Below, in pieces: positions 26,201-32,219 of a DNA stretch of 32,219 nucleotides. Positions within the stretch are counted from its first letter, which is position 1. Each line of letters opens with the position of its first letter. The stretch is from a virus. A model generated the notes under the pieces. The model did not search any database. It was not told the origin of the DNA and saw only the letters and a list, made by a program, of their open reading frames with translations. Both the position numbers and the translations under genes were made by a program. The DNA lies in the IMG/VR virus record IMGVR_UViG_3300047546_000765, positions 1 to 32,219 of that record. One strand, written 5' to 3'.

Positions 26201-28131
26201 TCGGCAAATCTTCCTCTCCCCGCATTATCTCTAATTCTTATCAAAGGTGGTGAAGAATAATATTCACCTGGATTATCGATGACTAAACTTGTAACTTTTC
26301 CTTTTGTTACGATTGCTCTTACAACTGCTTCTCTTCCAGAAGTAATTACAACTTCTGGAGTTCTTGGAAAAACAGTCTGAGTATCAACTATAATCTTTTC
26401 AACAACTTGACCAGATAAAACAGATCTTGCTTGATTTGGAACTCCATCTAAAAGAACAAAAGGTGGCTTCTCATACCCACTTCCTTGTGTATCTACCTTT
26501 ATTTCTTCGAGAACACCAAAACGAACACTTTCTTCATCTTTATAACCAAAAATTGGAACACCATTTAATAGAACACCAACATCTCTTTTTGGTGTCTTAT
26601 AAACTTCTGTAGTTTTTGTTGGGTTCTTTCTGATCAGACGAAGAAGTTCTTGATCTAATACTTTTTCATTAACAATAGATCCATCCAAAATTTTATACGA
26701 TGGATAACTGGAGCTGGTAATATAGTAATATTGATCGTCCTCAAAAATTGCAGAAACGTCAGTTGATACTTCATCCAACTGAGAAGCAATAGATGGTAAA
26801 GTTGGTATATTAACTGAATTGCCTTGACTTAAAATCCATCTTGGTTGATTTGTTCCAGACAAAACAATCTTTGGATCTGCCGTTTCAAAACCAGGATTTG
26901 AAATCTGGATTTCATCTCCAGCAGATGAGTATGGTTGTGAATCTGCAGATTTAAAATTATATACTATACCTAAAGTTAATAACCTTACTCCAGGAGCATC
27001 TAAAACAACTGGTTTATAGACGGAAGATCCAACAGTATGGAAAGATGGAATAGAACCGCGTTGTTCAATAACAAATTGAGTTACATTTTTGTTCGAAAAA
27101 CGTATAAGTTCATTATTGATTAAAATCTCACCAGTTTTTTGCCATCCAATTGTTGAGAATACATCTATTCTTTTTCCAACGCCACTTGCCAAAAGCAAAT
27201 CTTTTTCTAATCTGGTTTTTGTAGATACTGAAAATAGTCCATTGACTGTTTCTGGAGCAAGAACAATATTCCAGATCTGCTCGTTATCTACTGTTCCTTC
27301 AGCAAAAACATTATCTATAGTTGCAGATGCATAACCATATTCATCGGATGCTGATTGAACAACCGACTTTCCGATTAAAGATTTTGGATCTCCAGAAATT
27401 ACTTTAACCTTTAAAGCATAGATGTTAATCCAATCGGATTCTGAAGATTTGTAAGTAAAATCTCTTGGGTTATATACAGATGGTTTATCATTAGAAATGA
27501 GAGTATTAAAAATGAATTTAATACTGGATTCTGTTCCTTTTGATTTGTAAAACTTTTTAATATTTTTGATGAGAGTTCTCTTATCGATCTCTCCCTTCAA
27601 ATATTTTTCTGGAAATGCTCCAAGATATTGTGCCTCAAAACTCTTGATTAAACCGTATAAAAATAAATTGCTGACATTAACAACAATGTCACTTGTTCCA
27701 TGTGCTGCAGCATCACTTGTTACAAAGACACTCTTTTCGTAAATATCACCAAGCTGAGTGTTTGCACTGACACCTCTGGAACACTCGGTTAATGTATTGC
27801 CGTTCTTCTCCGCATAAAAAATAATTTCATCGCCAATTTGCAAGAAACCATTTTTTTCTGGAAATCCCGATGCATCATCGAGAACGATTGTTGTATCAGA
27901 TGCCGTAATAGAACTTGTTAAGTTTGTATATTGATTGAGAATGCTCTTCTCGTAGAAATCAATATTTGCATACTTGTCTAAATTTAAAGCAATATCAAGA
28001 GCCTGCCCCTGCGCTTCTTGTTGCTCATAGTACTTCTGAACGAACTTACTAAAGAGTTCATATTCAGAACTAATGAAACTAGGAAGCTGCGACTCAATTA
28101 GAGTTGAAATTTTCTTAGTCTTGACTGCCAT
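17203..28131 (-). CDS. Giant gp7-like baseplate wedge protein with YHYH-like, helical-repeat and LamG-like domains (3642 aa)
   Basis: It lies exactly between gp6 and gp8, the gp7 position. Residues 1-270 contain EYELFSKFVQKYYE, DKRTLIKNIKKFYKSKGTES, IKFIFNTL and SLIGKSVVQSAS, which parallel the C-terminal third of T4 gp7 (FCEAYIQYL, FYSTKGIEASYKFLF, DLVGQTIY). A further gp7-like piece, YSYVVKSKTPIDQWRDLIKS and THPAGFRLFG, falls at residues about 1797-1838. Between them are RG-turn modules, glycine modules and a YHYH-like domain (about residues 700-880; AYDGNPIYGPF at 758, then GRFCITPDYPDGTYAYF). Residues about 2033-2370 hold two copies of a helical module (RDIGYILDA, FGGN). Residues about 3440-3590 look like a LamG/concanavalin-type lectin domain (FTIESWIYRT, NTWCHVAISK, IKGTSLYTTNF). 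T4 gp7 is 1032 aa. The wedge role is inferred from synteny and motifs; the lectin domain suggests surface contact. Confidence 0.9.
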   Translation of the reverse strand: MAVKTKKISTLIESQLPSFISSEYELFSKFVQKYYEQQEAQGQALDIALNLDKYANIDFYEKSILNQYTNLTSSITASDTTIVLDDASGFPEKNGFLQIGDEIIFYAEKNGNTLTECSRGVSANTQLGDIYEKSVFVTSDAAAHGTSDIVVNVSNLFLYGLIKSFEAQYLGAFPEKYLKGEIDKRTLIKNIKKFYKSKGTESSIKFIFNTLISNDKPSVYNPRDFTYKSSESDWINIYALKVKVISGDPKSLIGKSVVQSASDEYGYASATIDNVFAEGTVDNEQIWNIVLAPETVNGLFSVSTKTRLEKDLLLASGVGKRIDVFSTIGWQKTGEILINNELIRFSNKNVTQFVIEQRGSIPSFHTVGSSVYKPVVLDAPGVRLLTLGIVYNFKSADSQPYSSAGDEIQISNPGFETADPKIVLSGTNQPRWILSQGNSVNIPTLPSIASQLDEVSTDVSAIFEDDQYYYITSSSYPSYKILDGSIVNEKVLDQELLRLIRKNPTKTTEVYKTPKRDVGVLLNGVPIFGYKDEESVRFGVLEEIKVDTQGSGYEKPPFVLLDGVPNQARSVLSGQVVEKIIVDTQTVFPRTPEVVITSGREAVVRAIVTKGKVTSLVIDNPGEYYSSPPLIRIRDNAGRGRFADYTAIVDTDGKLTGFTKNAEGNFYEQSTVIVDVIPVGRGASGTPYLKEWNKNRFTKLSNVLDTDYGYVFENYNNVLEYGYGHIGNPKALRILLNDNLNNAGSEPPVKVHSPILGFAYDGNPIYGPFAHQNPLDPQSPIVRMTSSYTLNNNRPKGPSTTTYPLGDFVNDYRYVHKSGSLDENNGRFCITPDYPDGTYAYFLTIDSNQVPQFPYFIGENFYSLPVDSNYNSNINQADIPRKSKRLFVPNIPRNGDGVIAKIAEVRSGTVDSISVLQSSNNFSINSKIYFDNSGTEGKEVDAIVSSVKGRPVNYIQSKENKVVQLTTIQTAYLFANDTLRQPSTGAYGEIVGTVANDNLVVLKNVSGTFNGTGTFSADIKTFSILIDQDSSYTEGAILSLTDGLNPAIATGEVLEGTSKQNTVKIKVLTGTWVVDDDYFIQSNDLFNTSGSRIVTLTSLSDGLIPFDVNQSVALVETSVEHGLGIGDEVNIDILPNDATKTKTYYLRKRLYQKVKFVPPTYKSVLTYTGVGRFEIFNGGADYTPGTYLNVPLTGGSGTGAQANIVVSSAGVVSSVVITSGGSGYKKADYLSVDDESLVRSSGSLGNSRLILYVDHVGFAAGLTKLIVDSSIGVSNGDLLKIGKEVVEVSSILGNTLTVVRGKEGTLSSDHFDGEEVILFNAKYRFTNNFQLSSSATTGYIKLYDEETQEATIVFDYVTQLESAEEVQISTSFFDSSSPKKLVSVESADSAEYKFEFSTDNSNFVVNPNIDLQEYYKYKFDTSHSSLTGTYFDISPSKNYNIITEEKVTSNILPGNSGAFTSVKFGFGSALAFNSYNQKKGTQFSNFYYFDKNGIVESDEKYFKIISDPLQGTKKITYVTPTRFVYELNSTPLWDGSGVITYTTNGEFAIGQIDKVKIVNLGLNYKKIPVVIGCDPNKSFKAKATVLFDNSTKIINGVRIDEEGLNYINPRIVITNGDGVDARFNIVVRDGKIFSITVVNPGKGYTFAPEIEIIEGSLEAYAESTSIGVPQSVTIIQNGGAFHNDKTVSSKFTSKYVFALTSISGNFQRGELVVQKINNNEVARGIVSEWRTGSNLLKVEKVSGIFRTGYPVSSLIFTTSGIIKSIFVSTFEDEISSFYDNIGYYSSDRGRLGVSNQRLLDSKFYQDYSYVVKSKTPIDQWRDLIKSTTHPAGFRLFGQVDIEAAAESSMPQQQSNKNSHFSIIQLWDPNKNKITVENTKRTITQTIQKVENQRIRRGFGTAAPSEFNFDEYTAFEVSLSAPFDGYYDSDGRLQGTTVFQLRKNNVPFTPYSAKNLIITLDGIIQEPGVSYTVLNDTIVFSKPPLGPGVEKTGNGLSDVTSYKGVTFYGKYFAFKDNEYNSRYLRKLRNIFQRSGRWIDAANQLERNRTFIIEESVGYGKEKHPNLDWSTKLDDYQRDIGYILDAYQHDIRFGGNVKIVDYVSIFKSDSDYDYITKNKTRSLDIFKYATKLASLSIRNWDIVENGISYTTGSSSVTVANTNRLAIGMYISCGRAFPANTRITEINNSTQITLSNNALVTSASDQATFYLSAINNGSYYDAANLIKKNKLHLQEEVSEYIYDNYALPSTDKQKCKRDLGYLIDAVVYHLKFGGNEKIVEFARSYYEFYGYPYGEKLTYINRSAIETAAAIDAWETLGDLMILAMRNQLSNGAYTSIPPVIDNTILTDPITPVCQEVASSINTMINIVKDILENGAGVVEITENNRNKSGNWTNTLTYSNYNLIDDPLLLAQECNDVISSVDSLYANVKDILDKKTVVRTLPDYVDGENKVFDLYWETGEEVVTDEDEDLFLTINAVLQRPKYTEDYPRFDSYYIKRDVVPNQLVFDVAPIWDQDFSAKSIGEPTAVEKVVGIGVGNYKRLTIDYNLVDDIKSGPFLILDVEDFTVQNIEEPDFLYVFLDGVLQRKGYSYTVSGPNIFFNVPILKEMKIDMRYLYGRNIGQVLNVYDYNPDSFYAKGRATLQVSNGLADFIRYSWMGDKIGSSIHVYQTNTNGSYNIVGQLSNVYVTGNQLEFDLFGSKAQIDITKPVWFAVSGFYNLKTSITVSSASIVYETDDAGRLVLSDLEQVWSGTVIGKSYKRPFVGLSNNDLVRIDGQDKFRRIKRLPTRTTSKENRNYQQVSNSFFGRVDIETFNGISRGEGLSVVAKIENGKVIKLEWNQRSYNPITQPTAYQYEVPPILHFIPLDGNGGGARANVLVSKGQVISVDLIDGGSGYTQEPKIVVARGFDILNERDIGVSLINIGINSFISQGGYVAYSSIDILGNQVANVSSITSVIVDSPLSADRVITAQIQIKTVPGNNFKVAKTQLATTSAPFAADVKAFNTQYKATQAISVISGRVSDIISTSILATTRQITSTFENLIPNDALSNINYYANASLLQVDLSASDTVVYVADTSKFKSYGYLLIGKEIVRYYRKLNDRFLSVERGQLNTSPAEWSAGTFLRQIPDPVSTAFGGVSVVESQSQLVTVKGGLGATNASESLQRYQIITPSASVVNVSEQIEIDLRSTGVINSVTNVSYKTTSIVNTTLDSIKSFVTSASVKQLATTFNILRDVKIQSTAKFELLLIPPPTGAVDGYVENLYWTDPILQRSGSFVTLDTSIYGRHVVQRNSSILLIRNISPSDNQYIGTYEVTNAGHTISHFNGLFDDGTSDVSGISLEEVERYYPTLTIQDFELRGRSSYTLDGFYFSLMPPSIQNPITIPFSTGSVTSTIEVPSTTFFPTSGYLFTGSGGVIQYTGKTSTSFTGCTSVRGSTTLIGNSVSFDGTGDGLSLASSTLFGWGTGAFTIESWIYRTTSGVYQIIFDTRTSVASEIAVTVGIDNINRLYAYVNGSIVIQSTTNVPANTWCHVAISKTGTTTRLFQNGTQVGSTYTDNNNYASKPMKIGLSYDGTAGFGGNISSFRAIKGTSLYTTNFTVPSQITNISGTSLLTCQGRTIKDRSSNNLSITVNGDAIVSNTGNEIIPFEIT
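21000..22035. repeat. Duplicated helical module within the giant gp7-like gene
   Basis: Two copies offset by about 178-180 residues share the order DAAN.(L/I)..N, E(E)(S/V), RD(I/L)GY(I/L)(L/I)DA, (R/K)FGGN.KIV. Copy 1 runs from SGRWIDAANQLERNR (S at 22035) through QRDIGYILDA to IRFGGN. Copy 2 runs from NGSYYDAANLIKKNK through KRDLGYLIDA to LKFGGN. A shorter repeat follows copy 2 (CQEVASSINTMINIVKDIL versus QECNDVISSVDSLYANVKDI). Confidence 0.85.
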
Positions 28132-28135
28132 TTAA

Positions 28136-29932
28136 TTACTCTTTGTACGCAATAAAACTACTATTTGCTACATCTACATCAAGATAAACCTCACGACTTA
28201 CCTTGATATCATTTGAAGCAGGTTTGACTCTAACTGAGATTCTATTATCAAAGAAACTACCTTTTATGATAGTCAGATTATACATTTTAAGTTCGCCATT
28301 TTCATAATCGATATCGCCAACTTCTTTGTCCAGAACGACTTTATCACCAGTTATTGCATCTATTCTATATAGAATGATTTTACCATCCCTATCTTCGAGA
28401 TAGACATCAAATAACGGATATTCAGTAACTCTAAACCCAGTGGTGGATAGAGTTGGTCCATCGCAATCCTTATCAAAAGCATTCTGGAAACATATCTCAT
28501 AATAGTAAGTGGAGTTTAGTTGAGGATAGAAATCTTTCCTCATAAAAACTTGTGTTAGGTTAGAATTGATAGTTTTATCTGCGTCGTCAATAACACCAAT
28601 TGCTTTACTGTATCTAAAGGTTCCATTGAACTTTTCTGTGCCAGACAGATTAATATACTGCTGGAAAGCACCAATTACTTGGTCTCTAATTTGTGCAGGA
28701 GTTTTACTTGTTTTGCCACCATCATAGAAAATCTTACTTTGCAACTCAACAAATAAGATAGAAGGATCGATCAATACAGGTTCTACTGATGCAATCGCAT
28801 ATTTTTTTATCTCAGCAACAATTTCCTTCTTTGTGAATGATGTAAGATAAGATGCATCAGATGGCTTGACAGCAATAAAAACTTTTCCATACATGGGTGG
28901 ATTTTGTTCTTCTCCACCAAATGTAATAATATCACTGACTGCTGGATAAATCTTTCTTACAATTGCTGCATAATCATTTGATGTTACTGCGCGATCTTGA
29001 GCACCAAATAACTTTGGAGCATTAAATTTAATTTTTTCTACACTCTCAATGTCTTCCCCACCAGAAGAAGCAACAATGTTATTGATTGTCGTTGTAAAAG
29101 CATTAGGAGAGGTGCCTGTGGGAGTCTCCAAGACGCCAGAAAATACAAACGTGCCTACTCCATTAGATGCTGGACCAGAGGTTACTAGATAGGTCACTTC
29201 GATGCGAGTGTTGTTTTCTAGATTTCTACCCAAAACTCCATCACCAAAAATTAATTCGTATCTCTCATCTTCAATCTCATTCAAAAAGAAAATCTTTGAT
29301 AGACCATCGACATTGAGAATATTATCAGATCTCAGATAAGGTTCGTTGAATGATCCTCCACCAGGATAAACTCTCACTTCAATGGTGTTGGTATCAATCG
29401 ATTGGTTATCTAGGATAAACTTTTGACTCTTTAATGCAGTATTGACAGTAAAATTGTTTGTTACAAAAGTTCCTTCTTTTAATTTTACGTTGTCAAATAC
29501 TGCGATGTTATTTGATACTTGAGCCTTAATATCAACTGGAGTTATGTAAGAATACAATGTGTTCTCATATGAACTAATAAATCCAGTTCCTTTCTTAAGA
29601 ATTAGTTCTGTGTCTGTTGTTGGATTGGTGTAATTAACAGCAAAACTAACGTAAGCAGTTGGAGATGTAATTGATTTAGGAGTATAACCTAACTGCTTGG
29701 CAAGCGATACCACATTATCTCGTAGCGTTGCACTGTCAATGAATAACTCATTGACAACCATGTTGGTATTGAATGCCGTATAATACGTATTATACGCAAG
29801 AACATCAATAAGGTTACTTAATACAGAACCTTCAAAATCATAATCAGTGAAATCTGTCTGTGCTCTCAAATATTCTTTGAGTGCAATCTTGATTTCTTCA
29901 AAATCTAAATTGGCAACCTGTGCGTAAGGCAT
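28136..29932 (-). CDS. gp6: Baseplate wedge protein gp6
   Basis: At 598 aa it is close to T4 gp6 (660 aa), the gp6/J-like protein that forms the inner dimeric ring of the wedge and joins gp25, gp7 and gp53. Family landmarks are NLIDVLAYNTYYTAFN and LAKQLGYTPKS in the first 100 residues, FGDGVLGRNLENNTRIEV near residue 230, and SGGEDIESVEKIKFNAP followed by DRAVTSNDYAAIVRKIYP near residues 290-330. The gene starts on the base next to the gp25 stop codon, and its own stop is 4 nt before the giant gp7-like gene, so the three are probably translated from one message. Confidence 0.96.
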   Translation of the reverse strand: MPYAQVANLDFEEIKIALKEYLRAQTDFTDYDFEGSVLSNLIDVLAYNTYYTAFNTNMVVNELFIDSATLRDNVVSLAKQLGYTPKSITSPTAYVSFAVNYTNPTTDTELILKKGTGFISSYENTLYSYITPVDIKAQVSNNIAVFDNVKLKEGTFVTNNFTVNTALKSQKFILDNQSIDTNTIEVRVYPGGGSFNEPYLRSDNILNVDGLSKIFFLNEIEDERYELIFGDGVLGRNLENNTRIEVTYLVTSGPASNGVGTFVFSGVLETPTGTSPNAFTTTINNIVASSGGEDIESVEKIKFNAPKLFGAQDRAVTSNDYAAIVRKIYPAVSDIITFGGEEQNPPMYGKVFIAVKPSDASYLTSFTKKEIVAEIKKYAIASVEPVLIDPSILFVELQSKIFYDGGKTSKTPAQIRDQVIGAFQQYINLSGTEKFNGTFRYSKAIGVIDDADKTINSNLTQVFMRKDFYPQLNSTYYYEICFQNAFDKDCDGPTLSTTGFRVTEYPLFDVYLEDRDGKIILYRIDAITGDKVVLDKEVGDIDYENGELKMYNLTIIKGSFFDNRISVRVKPASNDIKVSREVYLDVDVANSSFIAYKE

Positions 29933-30325
29933 TTATCGAGTTCTCTCTAGGAAAAATTCTACTGCCACAGGTGTATCTTGTCTGCCAACAATACTATAAG
30001 AAAGTTCAACTTGAAATCCATTTTCATCAGAATCTGGATATGCTAGCACACTCAAAACAGAAATTCTTGGTTCGTATCTTTCGAGTACTTCTCTAACTTC
30101 TAAAGAAATCAAAGCAGCAGTTGCATTATCTAAAGGTTCAAATAATAGATTCAAAAGACGCGAACCAAGATTCGGTTGAAACATGCGCTCACCAATACGA
30201 GTAAAAAGCAAATTCTGAATTGCTTGAGCAATTGCAGCTTTATCTTTTACAACGATTAGATCGTCAGTAACAGGATGCTTTTTAAACGTGACGCTTAGAT
30301 CTTTAAACGTCTGAAATGATGGCAT
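29933..30325 (-). CDS. gp25: Baseplate wedge protein gp25 (GPW/gp25 family)
   Basis: The 130-aa product is nearly the length of T4 gp25 (132 aa). It shows the family core NLLFTRIGERMFQPNLGSRL, then LLFEPLD and the invariant RYEPRI motif, with EVREVLE before it. gp25 sits with gp6 at the tube/sheath end of the wedge, and the EPR motif is needed for nucleating the sheath; homologues occur as TssE in type VI secretion and in other contractile systems. An AATAAATA late-promoter-like octamer lies 25 nt upstream, and no clear Shine-Dalgarno precedes the ATG. Confidence 0.96.
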   Translation of the reverse strand: MPSFQTFKDLSVTFKKHPVTDDLIVVKDKAAIAQAIQNLLFTRIGERMFQPNLGSRLLNLLFEPLDNATAALISLEVREVLERYEPRISVLSVLAYPDSDENGFQVELSYSIVGRQDTPVAVEFFLERTR

Positions 30326-30349
30326 TAGAAGATAAACTGAGGCTAGTAT

Positions 30350-30357
30350 TATTTATT
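30350..30357 (-). promoter_or_regulatory. Candidate late promoter AATAAATA upstream of gp25
   Basis: The minus strand reads GTGAATAAATAATACTAG, overlapping the stop codon of the 68-aa gene and lying 25 nt before the gp25 ATG. It matches T4 late TATAAATA at seven of eight positions. Confidence 0.5.
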
Positions 30358-30563
30358 CACTCGTGCCAACGTTCTACAAAGTCATCAAAACCACCAGCAC
30401 CCCCACAAGGACGCTCATAACGATCCTCTGGAAGTGGATAGAGTTCTTCTTTCTTCTTTAGTTTTTTATATGCCTTAAGATGTTTCTCACTATCTGTCTC
30501 TGTGATTAGAGTCATACCTTCATCAATAAATTCTTTACTTTTATCGACTGGATATAGTCCCAT
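30357..30563 (-). CDS. Conserved-type small protein (68 aa) upstream of gp25
   Basis: The product starts MGLYPVDKSKEFIDEG, has a Lys-rich helical middle (HLKAYKKLKKKEEL) and ends in RPCGGAGGFDDFVERWHE. It is highly charged, with no signal peptide or membrane helix. The start is well supported: a strong AAGGAG Shine-Dalgarno lies 7 nt before the ATG, the best ribosome binding site among the small genes here. Its C-terminal acidic/aromatic tail (DDFVERW) could be a docking peptide, but that is a guess. I cannot name a function. Confidence 0.8.
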   Translation of the reverse strand: MGLYPVDKSKEFIDEGMTLITETDSEKHLKAYKKLKKKEELYPLPEDRYERPCGGAGGFDDFVERWHE

Positions 30564-30640
30564 TGTTTTTGCTCCTTAAAAGATCTATGATAGAACTTTT
30601 TTCGGGGTTGCTATCCCGTTCGGAGATGTCGGCGCTTTAT

Positions 30641-30793
30641 TCAACCCTTACCTTGACCACGATAACGCTTCTTACGACCATTACGTGAGCTTGCACCAAG
30701 ATGTGTATTTTGAGAACGACCTTGACGGGTCTTTTTCGGTGCTCCCTCGGTGTAACCAGTTTTGACTAGACCAACTTTTGATTTTGCTGCCAT
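30641..30793 (-). CDS. Tiny Arg/Lys/Gly-rich basic protein (50 aa)
   Basis: Translation from the ATG at 30793 gives a 50-aa product beginning MAAKSKVGLVKTGYTEGAPK and ending RNGRKKRYRGQGKG, with a TGA at 30641. It has about fifteen Arg/Lys, many Gly, and only one acidic residue. It fits tightly between the 150-aa gene (5-nt gap) and the 68-aa gene, and the frame uses no rare-looking codons. The composition suggests nucleic-acid binding or an unstructured ribosomal-protein-like tail; it could also be a virion-packaged basic peptide. No T4 homologue is recognised. The start lacks a strong Shine-Dalgarno and may depend on coupling with the upstream gene. Confidence 0.75.
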   Translation of the reverse strand: MAAKSKVGLVKTGYTEGAPKKTRQGRSQNTHLGASSRNGRKKRYRGQGKG

Positions 30794-30798
30794 AAGAT

Positions 30799-31251
30799 TT
30801 AAATAGGATTTGTACCAATAATTATTGTAGGATATTCCGATGGTGCTGTCAAGTCTTTGATCGGTCTGATAGGAGGCACCGTGGTGGGAAGACTTGACAT
30901 CCCATCACCTGCCACTGTTACTAAATTGCCCTCAAAAAACACCCGAGTATTTTGCACGGCAGTTATTGTAGGTCTTTTAATTGATGGCGGCGTGGGAATA
31001 TTGGGAGGAACTGGATTGGTCCCAGGAACGTCTGGATGGGACCCAGAAGACTCTGCAACGTTCATGATCTTCATATTGACTTGCAAAGTATCTGGCTGCC
31101 CTTCCTCGCCTGCTGAGGGGTTTGGAACAGAGGTTTTGATTGTTTCTAATTCTTTCTGCACACCTTGTATAACCAGTGGAGGAAAGATTGTTGTGCCGAT
31201 AACTGAGACAGTATCATCCATTAATGGATTGACAATTTTTCCAGATCCCAT
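30799..31251 (-). CDS. Proline-rich protein with PAAR-like C-terminus, candidate spike-tip protein (150 aa)
   Basis: The N-terminus reads MGSGKIVNPLMDDTVSVIGT with FPPLVIQGVQKEL. A proline-rich linker follows (PDVPGTNPVPPNIPTPPSI, about residues 74-92), and then TAVQNTRVFFEGNLVTVAGDG and a C-terminal YPTIIIGTNPI. The VFFEGNLVTVAGD segment resembles the beta repeat of PAAR proteins (V.VNGKP..R.GD), which cap the central spike of T4 (gp5.4) and of type VI systems. However, only one histidine is present, so the usual His/Cys metal site is not apparent. The start overlaps the stop of the coiled-coil gene as TGATG, implying translational coupling. The PAAR assignment is tentative; 'structural protein of the baseplate cluster' is safer. 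Confidence 0.78.
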   Translation of the reverse strand: MGSGKIVNPLMDDTVSVIGTTIFPPLVIQGVQKELETIKTSVPNPSAGEEGQPDTLQVNMKIMNVAESSGSHPDVPGTNPVPPNIPTPPSIKRPTITAVQNTRVFFEGNLVTVAGDGMSSLPTTVPPIRPIKDLTAPSEYPTIIIGTNPI

Positions 31252-31481
31252 CAGACTGTTCTTGCAAGTTTTGTTAGATCTTGTTTCAGACCTTCTATAT
31301 TATTATGTAGATAATCTAGAGTGTCTGAGAGTTTTTCATATTCACTCGCATTCGGACGGCGGTACATCAATGAAGGTTTCTCCAATTTCGATAGGCGCTG
31401 GTCCAGGTTCTGCAATTTCTCTGACAGCTCTTGGAGTTTCGCTTCGTGTCTCTGTAAGAGTTCTATTAAGTTTTCCATCAT
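31251..31481 (-). CDS. Small coiled-coil protein (76 aa)
   Basis: I place the start at the ATG at 31481 because a GGAG Shine-Dalgarno lies 6 nt upstream (31491-31488); the same frame is open for 21 codons further upstream but without better support. The protein starts MMENLIELLQRHEAKLQELS and continues with heptad-spaced Leu (EKLQNLDQRLSKLEK), then a second amphipathic helix (LDYLHNNIEGLKQDLTKLA). This is a two-part coiled coil typical of small phage structural or chaperone proteins. Its stop overlaps the start of the 150-aa gene. Its first 140 nt overlap the 3' part of the acidic 81-aa ORF in another frame. Confidence 0.75.
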   Translation of the reverse strand: MMENLIELLQRHEAKLQELSEKLQNLDQRLSKLEKPSLMYRRPNASEYEKLSDTLDYLHNNIEGLKQDLTKLARTV

Positions 31482-31587
31482 TCTGATCTCCACGTAGGAA
31501 TGCCTCTGCGGCGCGACTCTCGAAGGCGTCACAGAAATCATCAAAGTTGTTTAAAATATTTTCAAAATCCTTGAAATTAGGTTCCAT
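31342..31587 (-). CDS. Acidic small protein (81 aa), overlapping the coiled-coil gene
   Basis: The product starts MEPNFKDFENILNNFDDF and ends TFIDVPPSECE. The N-terminal half is an acidic helix (CDAFESRAAEAFLRGD), and the rest is Pro/Glu-rich and probably disordered (EIAEPGPAPIEIGE). A late-promoter-like AATAAATA lies about 40 nt upstream, but the Shine-Dalgarno is weak. It overlaps the upstream basic ORF by 37 nt and the coiled-coil gene by 140 nt on the same strand in a different frame. The biased composition and non-random N-terminus favour a real gene, but one of the overlapping frames could be fortuitous. Function unknown. Confidence 0.6.
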   Translation of the reverse strand: MEPNFKDFENILNNFDDFCDAFESRAAEAFLRGDQNDGKLNRTLTETRSETPRAVREIAEPGPAPIEIGETFIDVPPSECE

Positions 31588-31763
31588 AATGCTTTCAGTA
31601 TTAGAGTGAAACTATCATTCTTTGAATATTTATTGGACGACTTTTTCGGGCGATTTTTTTGGCGGGAATTTTTTTGGAATTCATAGAATTGACGAAGCAA
31701 TTTTCGTTCTTGGGTAGCTTGCCATCTGCGAGTACCCATGGAAAGTTTTTGACCTTTTCTCAT
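31551..31763 (-). CDS. Basic small protein (70 aa), unknown function
   Basis: The product begins MRKGQKLSMGTRRWQATQER, is very rich in Lys/Arg through residue 50 and ends in a short hydrophobic helix (TLILKALWNLISRILKIF) that could be membrane-associated or amphipathic. An alternative start at Met9 (31739) is possible; neither start has a clear Shine-Dalgarno. The coding strand contains two runs of seven A and one of five A, unusual for a short gene. It is the first ORF downstream of the terminator at 31875-31901 and overlaps the next ORF by 37 nt. No family recognised. Confidence 0.5.
   Translation of the reverse strand: MRKGQKLSMGTRRWQATQERKLLRQFYEFQKNSRQKNRPKKSSNKYSKNDSFTLILKALWNLISRILKIF
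31627..31634 (-). promoter_or_regulatory. Candidate late promoter AATAAATA upstream of the 81-aa ORF
   Basis: The minus strand reads CCAATAAATATTCAAAG within the 70-aa ORF, about 40 nt before the ATG at 31587. It matches seven of eight bases of T4 late TATAAATA and has the same octamer as the site before gp25. Confidence 0.45.
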
Positions 31764-31874
31764 GATTTTTTTCTGGGGGAATTTTTTATTTTACAAGAAT
31801 TTATCGAGGTCGTCTGGATACTTTTGTAGGTTAGGGGAGGTGCAATATGGGACCCGCTCGGCCGCCTTAAATAT
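31764..31874. other. Leader / intergenic region after the terminator
   Basis: About 110 nt between the terminator and the first small gene of the baseplate cluster hold no convincing ORF. On the minus strand it begins G+C-rich (GGCGGCCGAGCGGGTCCC) and becomes A-rich near the gene. A weak late-like octamer GATAAATT sits at 31798-31805. I looked for a tRNA T-loop signature and found none. Confidence 0.5.
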
Positions 31875-31901
31875 AAAAAAAGGGGGACAAATCACTGTCC
31901 C
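31875..31901 (-). terminator. Intrinsic terminator after the HicA-like gene
   Basis: On the minus strand GGGACA GTGATT TGTCCC forms a perfect 6-bp stem with a 6-nt loop, followed by CC and seven T. The upstream arm and loop include the last codons and stop of the HicA-like gene, so the gene ends inside the hairpin. It separates the right-end genes from the baseplate cluster. Confidence 0.88.
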
Positions 31902-32071
31902 ACTGTCATTAATTGCTTGGCGATGTTGTGTCCTACGAATGACTTAACTTGGTAGGGGATTGTGATCTGCTTGCCTGCATCTTCGTGGCGATAGATGTAA
32001 TGCTTGCTGCCGTTCCTATGTAATGTCCAACCATGCACCTTTGCGAGTTTGTGCAACTGTTTGCTGGTCAT
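31892..32071 (-). CDS. HicA-like (YcfA-type) small protein, 59 aa
   Basis: Translation from the ATG at 32071 to the TGA at 31892 gives 59 aa. It starts MTSKQLHKLAKVHGWTLHRN and continues GSKHYIYRHEDAGKQITIP and FVGHNIAKQLM. This is the HicA layout: N-terminal helix, W/F, R..GS.H, a beta hairpin ending in (I/V)P, then a C-terminal helix, the small dsRBD-like fold of toxin mRNA interferases. The GS and His are separated by one Lys (GSKH), where classical HicA has GSH, so catalysis is uncertain. No HicB antitoxin gene is visible next to it; the gene is followed at once by a terminator. G+C is about 47% by count, above the structural genes. No good Shine-Dalgarno is seen. Alternative: a HicA-fold RNA-binding protein without toxin activity. 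Confidence 0.72.
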   Translation of the reverse strand: MTSKQLHKLAKVHGWTLHRNGSKHYIYRHEDAGKQITIPYQVKSFVGHNIAKQLMTVGQ

Positions 32072-32111
32072 GAGTGAGTGTAGAGAAATGGCGGTGTGCT
32101 AGGATGGGGGG

Positions 32112-32219
32112 TCACCCGAAGGTGGGGAGTTTGGCGACTGCTTCCTCCTGGTAGCGGTCGGCATAGCACCCTGCCCACCACCAACCCTCAGCGGGGCGGA
32201 TCTGACCAGCATAGACTGT
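32112..32219 (-). CDS. C-terminal 35 residues of an unidentified gene (runs off right edge)
   Basis: The minus-strand frame is open from the window edge to a TGA at 32112. It encodes VYAGQIRPAEGWWWAGCYAD and then RYQEEAVAKLPTFG. The frame is 63% G+C by count, far above the rest of the window, and ends 40 nt before the HicA-like start. The aromatic cluster WWWAGCY and charged helix look protein-like but match no family I know. It does not resemble HicB. A short chance ORF cannot be excluded. Confidence 0.5.
   Translation of the reverse strand, partial: TVYAGQIRPAEGWWWAGCYADRYQEEAVAKLPTFG

What the first reader, a model, noticed from the sequence alone, without database searches (positions are those of the whole stretch)
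31875..32071. Orphan HicA-like gene with an altered GS-H motif, ended by a terminator inside its stop region
A short gene absent from simple length-filtered annotation encodes a HicA-type fold in G+C-richer DNA (about 47% by count). The key motif is GSKH where GSH is usual, and no HicB partner lies on either visible side. It may be a defused toxin, a phage-encoded antitoxin-binding decoy, or an RNA-binding regulator. It ends exactly at the border between the right-end genes and the baseplate cluster.
Basis: partly seen in the sequence, partly recalled or inferred. Interest (0 to 1): 0.6.

Follow-up and report, generated by a model that had tools for sequence, protein, structure and literature searches.

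The report
Lone HicA-type RNase gene in cyanophages
A 59-amino-acid gene in a virus of marine cyanobacteria encodes an intact-looking HicA RNA-cutting toxin without the usual HicB antitoxin; the same lone gene is carried, often unannotated, at the same place by many related viruses, so it is probably a tool the virus uses during infection rather than a broken toxin.

Summary
The gene is real: minus strand 31892-32071, 59 aa, Pfam HicA_toxin above the curated cut-off. [quoted passage not shown] Its hairpin terminator (31884-31901) does contain the stop codon in its loop. The motif is not altered: E. coli HicA (6HPB) reads GSNH, about 50 distinct cyanophage relatives read G[GSA][KNRS]H or GKH, and the essential Gly and His never vary. 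"Defused toxin" is therefore not supported (dN/dS about 0.07-0.22). "Orphan" holds. No HicB profile match occurs in the window, in 15 related contigs (one 186 kb) or in four complete Synechococcus phage genomes. The 5' neighbour changes between relatives (62-aa ORF, DUF7249, DUF3574), so there is no fixed partner. The gene is an accessory insert (17 of 59 sites) just before a terminator and a conserved late-promoter-like junction leading to the baseplate genes; two reference genomes leave it unannotated. Best reading: a stand-alone HicA-family endoribonuclease deployed in infection, comparable in logic to T4 RegB. Catalysis, timing and target are inferred. New variant of a known kind.

The parts
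31892..32071 (-). Stand-alone hicA-like gene, 59 aa, predicted HicA-family endoribonuclease; Gly21 and His24 form the G-x-x-H active-site loop
31884..31901 (-). Intrinsic terminator hairpin, 7 bp stem, stop codon TGA in the loop; T-run follows down to 31874
   Evidence: conserved with compensatory changes in relatives
32112..32219 (-). 3' end (35 codons and stop) of the upstream neighbour, a 57-65 aa ORF family ('ORF62') of unknown function, cut by the contig end; not a recognisable HicB
32072..32111 (-). Spacer upstream of hicA with TCTCTACACTCAC; close versions precede hicA behind two different upstream genes
31798..31847 (-). Conserved junction element (GGCCGAGCG...CCTAACCTACAAAAGTATCCAGACGA...GATAAATT) with a late-promoter-like end, between hicA and the structural genes; present also in phages without hicA
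31342..31587 (-). Conserved structural-side neighbour (phrog_10663 family), found downstream of hicA in all relatives with enough sequence

Best explanation
The gene encodes an intact HicA-family (dsRBD-like) endoribonuclease carried without an antitoxin as an accessory gene of T4-like cyanophages (Kyanoviridae). It is the last gene of a variable block of small genes. A terminator with the stop codon in its loop, followed by a conserved late-promoter-like junction, insulates it from the structural/baseplate genes. Most likely the protein cuts mRNA during infection, either host messages (takeover) or the phage's own earlier messages (stage switch). This is the logic of T4 RegB, a phage endoribonuclease that resembles the RelE/YoeB toxins and has no known antitoxin. 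A lytic phage needs no permanent antitoxin, because dose and timing can limit the enzyme, or host HicB may restrain it. Shown: family, predicted fold, conserved active-site residues, purifying selection, lack of a recognisable HicB or fixed partner, conserved location and terminator. Inferred: RNase activity, timing of expression, RNA target, benefit to the phage.
For: Pfam HicA above cut-off for the window protein, and HicA matches in 38 of 40 relatives. Fold H-E-E-E-H, pLDDT 89.4; the top six structural matches are HicA/TTHA1913 chains, Z 5.4-8.7, including E. coli HicA 6hpb. Gly21 and His24 invariant in the 40-row family alignment. Strongly basic protein, pI about 10.2. dN/dS medians 0.07-0.22. 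No HicB profile match in 20 records, including four complete genomes, whereas the PF15919 search found HicB next to hicA in picocyanobacterial genomes. Upstream neighbour variable, downstream neighbour constant. Empty site in S-CAM4 and ACG-2014e. RegB precedent, including no known antitoxin (PMC3014915).
Against: No activity, toxicity or expression data. The HicB searches are profile based and could miss a strongly diverged antitoxin elsewhere in the genome. The structure prediction for the 62-aa neighbour was uninformative (pLDDT 45). The target (host or phage RNA) is unknown. That cyanophages lack RegB was tested only weakly (no positive control contains RegB).
Confidence: 0.5

Rival explanations
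1. Hidden toxin-antitoxin pair: the true antitoxin is an unrecognised phage protein, either a small neighbour (62-aa ORF, DUF7249, DUF3574) or a gene elsewhere.
For: In some phages DUF7249 or DUF3574 touches or overlaps the hicA start (S-B43, L039, L049), as in compact class 1-2 hicAB/hicBA modules with HicB of 60-90 aa (PMC10865869).
Against: The neighbour is not constant. DUF7249 persists in phages without hicA. None of these proteins matches HicB, and no HicB profile rings anywhere in complete genomes.
Confidence: 0.15
2. Host-HicB interactor: the phage HicA binds host HicB, either to be kept silent by it or to titrate it and release host HicA.
For: Synechococcus/Cyanobium genomes carry hicA (9 of 11) and HicB-like genes (6 of 11), several side by side.
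Against: No sign of co-evolution was tested. The phage profile does not match the host HicAs, so a shared HicB interface is doubtful. Releasing a host toxin would not obviously help a lytic phage. The invariant catalytic His is not needed for a decoy.
Confidence: 0.15
3. Non-catalytic RNA-binding regulator on a HicA/dsRBD scaffold.
For: Basic dsRBD-like fold.
Against: The two residues required for HicA toxicity (Gly, His) are invariant across a family with only 61% mean column identity, which a purely binding role would not require.
Confidence: 0.15
4. Decaying or defused toxin remnant.
For: No HicB; accessory distribution (17 of 59 junction sites).
Against: dN/dS well below 1, intact frames, invariant active-site residues and conserved terminator across about 50 distinct sequences.
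Confidence: 0.05

Closest known systems
HicA toxins of type II HicAB modules (E. coli HicA 6HPB, B. pseudomallei HicA 4C26/6G26, S. pneumoniae HicA 5YRZ, TTHA1913 1WHZ)
   Same: Fold, size, basic surface, Gly and catalytic His in the beta1-beta2 loop, same G-S-x-H spacing as E. coli HicA
   Different: No HicB or other fixed partner; carried by lytic T4-like cyanophages in a structural-gene border; sequence too far for clear phmmer hits (best E 0.07 single sequence, 8.6e-4 with the profile)
Planktothrix phage PaV-LD HicAB (Gerdes 2024 class 1)
   Same: HicA-fold protein encoded by a cyanobacterial phage
   Different: PaV-LD has a cognate small HicB; none of the 14 contexts in that paper is a lone hicA
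T4 RegB endoribonuclease
   Same: Phage-encoded small RNase with toxin-like fold and no known antitoxin in a T4-like phage (function of ours inferred)
   Different: RegB is RelE/YoeB-like, not HicA-like; no homology claimed
phrog_353 'toxin' (S-H9-1 gp058 annotated 'toxin'; S-B43 QDH50599 annotated 'polyprotein')
   Same: S-H9-1 gp058 and S-B43 QDH50599 are homologues at the equivalent locus; the window protein matches phrog_353
   Different: No function described; two other isolates leave the gene unannotated

Membership tests
HicA toxin family (PF07927) | Match to family profile above curated cut-off | tested here: met
   31.9 bits against 27; 38 of 40 relatives match at E 0.001
HicA toxin family (PF07927) | alpha-beta-beta-beta-alpha dsRBD-like fold | tested here: met
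   AlphaFold2 pLDDT 89.4, H3-12 E16-20 E24-29 E34-39 H44-57; VIA-align Z up to 8.7 to HicA chains
HicA toxin family (PF07927) | Conserved Gly and catalytic His in the beta1-beta2 loop | tested here: met
   Gly21 and His24 invariant; E. coli HicA GSNH; requirement for Gly22/His24 in PMC3969222
HicA toxin family (PF07927) | RNase activity / growth arrest when expressed | not testable with these tools
   needs expression or in-vitro cleavage
HicAB toxin-antitoxin module | Adjacent cognate HicB (partial RNase H fold) | tested here: not met
   no PF15919 or PF05534 match at E 1 in the window, 15 contigs or 4 complete phage genomes; neighbours not HicB by Pfam
HicAB toxin-antitoxin module | Conserved two-gene operon | tested here: not met
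   upstream gene varies, downstream side is a terminator and structural genes
T4 RegB (works-like comparison only) | RegB sequence family PF10715 | not tested
   the hicA protein gave no PF10715 match in the Pfam scan; the fold is HicA-like, so membership is not claimed. No RegB over cut-off in the 5 large phage genomes searched (no positive control)

The most novel reading that the evidence does not exclude
A HicA-based, antitoxin-free endoribonuclease that T4-like cyanophages use as their counterpart of RegB, cutting host or early phage mRNA at the switch to late expression, possibly buffered by host HicB: a toxin family domesticated as a lytic-cycle regulator.
Probability: 0.2. Interest if true: 0.65.

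Novelty: new variant of a known kind. Interest (0 to 1): 0.42.

Why it matters
Gerdes's 2024 survey of HicA domains lists 14 genetic contexts and no lone hicA. A conserved, antitoxin-free HicA lineage at a fixed locus of abundant marine phages suggests that lytic phages use toxin nucleases in their own right. It gives a small, directly testable candidate for post-transcriptional control in cyanophages, whose takeover genes are mostly unknown.

Tried and rejected
(1) Altered-motif idea: rejected on E. coli HicA GSNH and on the family alignment, which also contains GKH members. (2) HicB in the upstream gene: the window holds only its last 35 codons; full-length homologues match no Pfam or PHROG family; an AlphaFold2 model of this ORF62 family was too poor to use (pLDDT 45), so no fold search was run on it. 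(3) DUF7249 as obligate partner: rejected, it occurs at the same junction without hicA. (4) Bacterial source of the gene: the pattern scan of genome contigs found no relative and the phage profile found none in 11 picocyanobacterial genomes; both empty answers are weak. (5) RNA family or tRNA at the junction: no Rfam match in the window or 15 relatives, no tRNA in the window. (6) Junction element as a peptide gene (..PNLQKYPDDR): no conserved start, frame closed just upstream in three loci. (7) NCBIfam: no match; PADLOC: one weak match, E 0.0089.

Full report
OBSERVATION. The window is a 32,219-base virus record. Its 27,000-32,219 segment matches 279 phage records, mostly Synechococcus phages and other cyanophages; the best (S-WAM2, S-RSM4) are Kyanoviridae and match across the baseplate genes. 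On the minus strand, 31892-32071 encodes MTSKQLHKLAKVHGWTLHRNGSKHYIYRHEDAGKQITIPYQVKSFVGHNIAKQLMTVGQ. It matches Pfam HicA_toxin above its cut-off and PHROG 353 'toxin'. G+C is 46.7% in the ORF against 35.2% for the window. The terminator is at 31901-31884 minus with the TGA in its loop.

THE MOTIF IS NORMAL. E. coli HicA in the crystal structure 6HPB contains GSNH, the same spacing as GSKH here. In B. pseudomallei HicA, Gly22 and His24 are needed for toxicity but Ser23 is not (PMC3969222). Among about 50 distinct relatives (49 distinct in IMG/VR, plus S-B43, S-H9-1, S-RSM4 and S-WAM2) the motif reads G-[GSA]-[KNRS]-H, or G-K-H in three members. Gly21 and His24 are invariant in the 40-row alignment, together with Gln5, Leu6, Ala10, Trp15, Arg19, Pro39 and Tyr40.

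FOLD. AlphaFold2 with that alignment gives helix-strand-strand-strand-helix at pLDDT 89.4. The best structural matches are HicA chains of B. pseudomallei, S. pneumoniae, Y. pestis HicA3 and E. coli and the related TTHA1913, Z 5.4-8.7. Unrelated chains follow at 5.2 and below, so the weakest HicA rows are not separated from them by score alone. Sequence search with the profile finds 5YRZ HicA at E 8.6e-4.

SELECTION. Pairwise Nei-Gojobori dN/dS medians in four clades are 0.22, 0.13, 0.07 and 0.18 (the last clade has saturated dS in several pairs). The gene is maintained, not decaying.

CONTEXT. In relatives with enough flanking sequence, two structural-side families (phrog_10663 and a coiled-coil protein) lie downstream of hicA. 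The upstream gene is not constant: a 57-65 aa ORF family, DUF7249 (PF23907), DUF3574 (overlapping ATGA) or others. In the window only the last 35 codons of the 62-aa ORF are present. S-CAM4 and ACG-2014e have DUF7249 followed directly by the junction element, with no hicA between. Of 59 junction-element loci with at least 350 bases upstream, 17 carry hicA. The gene is accessory, at a fixed site. S-RSM4 and S-WAM2 carry it unannotated.

NO ANTITOXIN FOUND. HicB profiles PF15919 and PF05534 gave nothing at E 1 in the window, 15 related contigs (one of 186 kb) and four complete cyanophage genomes. The same PF15919 search detects HicB-like genes in 6 of 11 Synechococcus/Cyanobium genomes, in several next to a HicA gene, so it works on relevant material; a strongly diverged antitoxin remains possible. 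Each of eight records searched with the HicA profile has exactly one HicA gene.

TERMINATOR AND JUNCTION. A GC-rich hairpin near the stop recurs in about 42 of 57 distinct relatives. In the window's clade it starts 7 bases before the stop, and the arms change together (GGGGCAG/TTGCCCC to GGGACAG/TTGTCCC). The DUF3574 clade lacks it. It is followed by an almost invariant intergenic sequence, CCTAACCTACAAAAGTATCCAGACGACCGATAAATA, ending in the NATAAATA late-promoter motif reported for S-PM2 (PMC2984593). In the window the last part reads GATAAATT, one base off. The early/late assignment of hicA is an inference from this layout.

MECHANISM. The protein is probably an active mRNA endonuclease. A lytic phage does not need a stable antitoxin, and T4 RegB is a precedent: structurally like RelE and YoeB, it cleaves early mRNAs, and its review notes that an antitoxin may not be required (PMC3014915). 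Cyanomyoviruses infect hosts that often carry HicAB, so a host HicB may restrain or be titrated by the phage protein; this was not tested. Activity, timing and target are inferred.

NOVELTY. HicA itself, and a cyanobacterial-phage HicAB pair (PaV-LD), are known (PMC10865869; PMC6293099). A lone hicA is not among the 14 contexts of the 2024 survey. A search of the open library for HicA with cyanophage returned 9 papers; only PMC6293099 was opened, and no title suggested this gene. I class it as a new variant of a known kind.

Noticed in passing
window 31798-31847 minus; L021-L088, L089, L090: Near-invariant intergenic element CCTAACCTACAAAAGTATCCAGACGACCGATAAATA after a variable GCC[AG]AGCG...GGGTCC stretch. 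At least 120 IMG/VR stretches hold the exact 25-base core; 105 phage records match at E up to 10 (31 over at least 80% of the query; the rest are weak matches), one place per record, almost all without annotation, with or without hicA. No Rfam match in the window or 15 relatives. Possibly a late-promoter or other cis-acting element.
   Followed up: partly
window 32074-32086 minus and loci L021-L088: TCTCTACACTAAC-like sequence just before the hicA start in many relatives, behind different upstream genes; it could be a promoter -10 (TACACT) or a translation signal that travels with hicA.
   Followed up: no
S-RSM4 (NC_013085) 136802-136969; S-WAM2 (NC_031935) 57101-57265: hicA homologues with no annotated feature in the reference records; the S-B43 homologue is labelled 'polyprotein'.
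   Followed up: yes
L014, L039-L041, L047, L048, L051: DUF3574 protein overlapping the hicA start (ATGA), with a weak Pfam match to S-AdoMet_lyase (E 0.0015, below cut-off).
   Followed up: partly
L171, L172, L174, L180: Synechococcus/Cyanobium genomes carry compact HicA-HicB pairs in both gene orders.
   Followed up: partly
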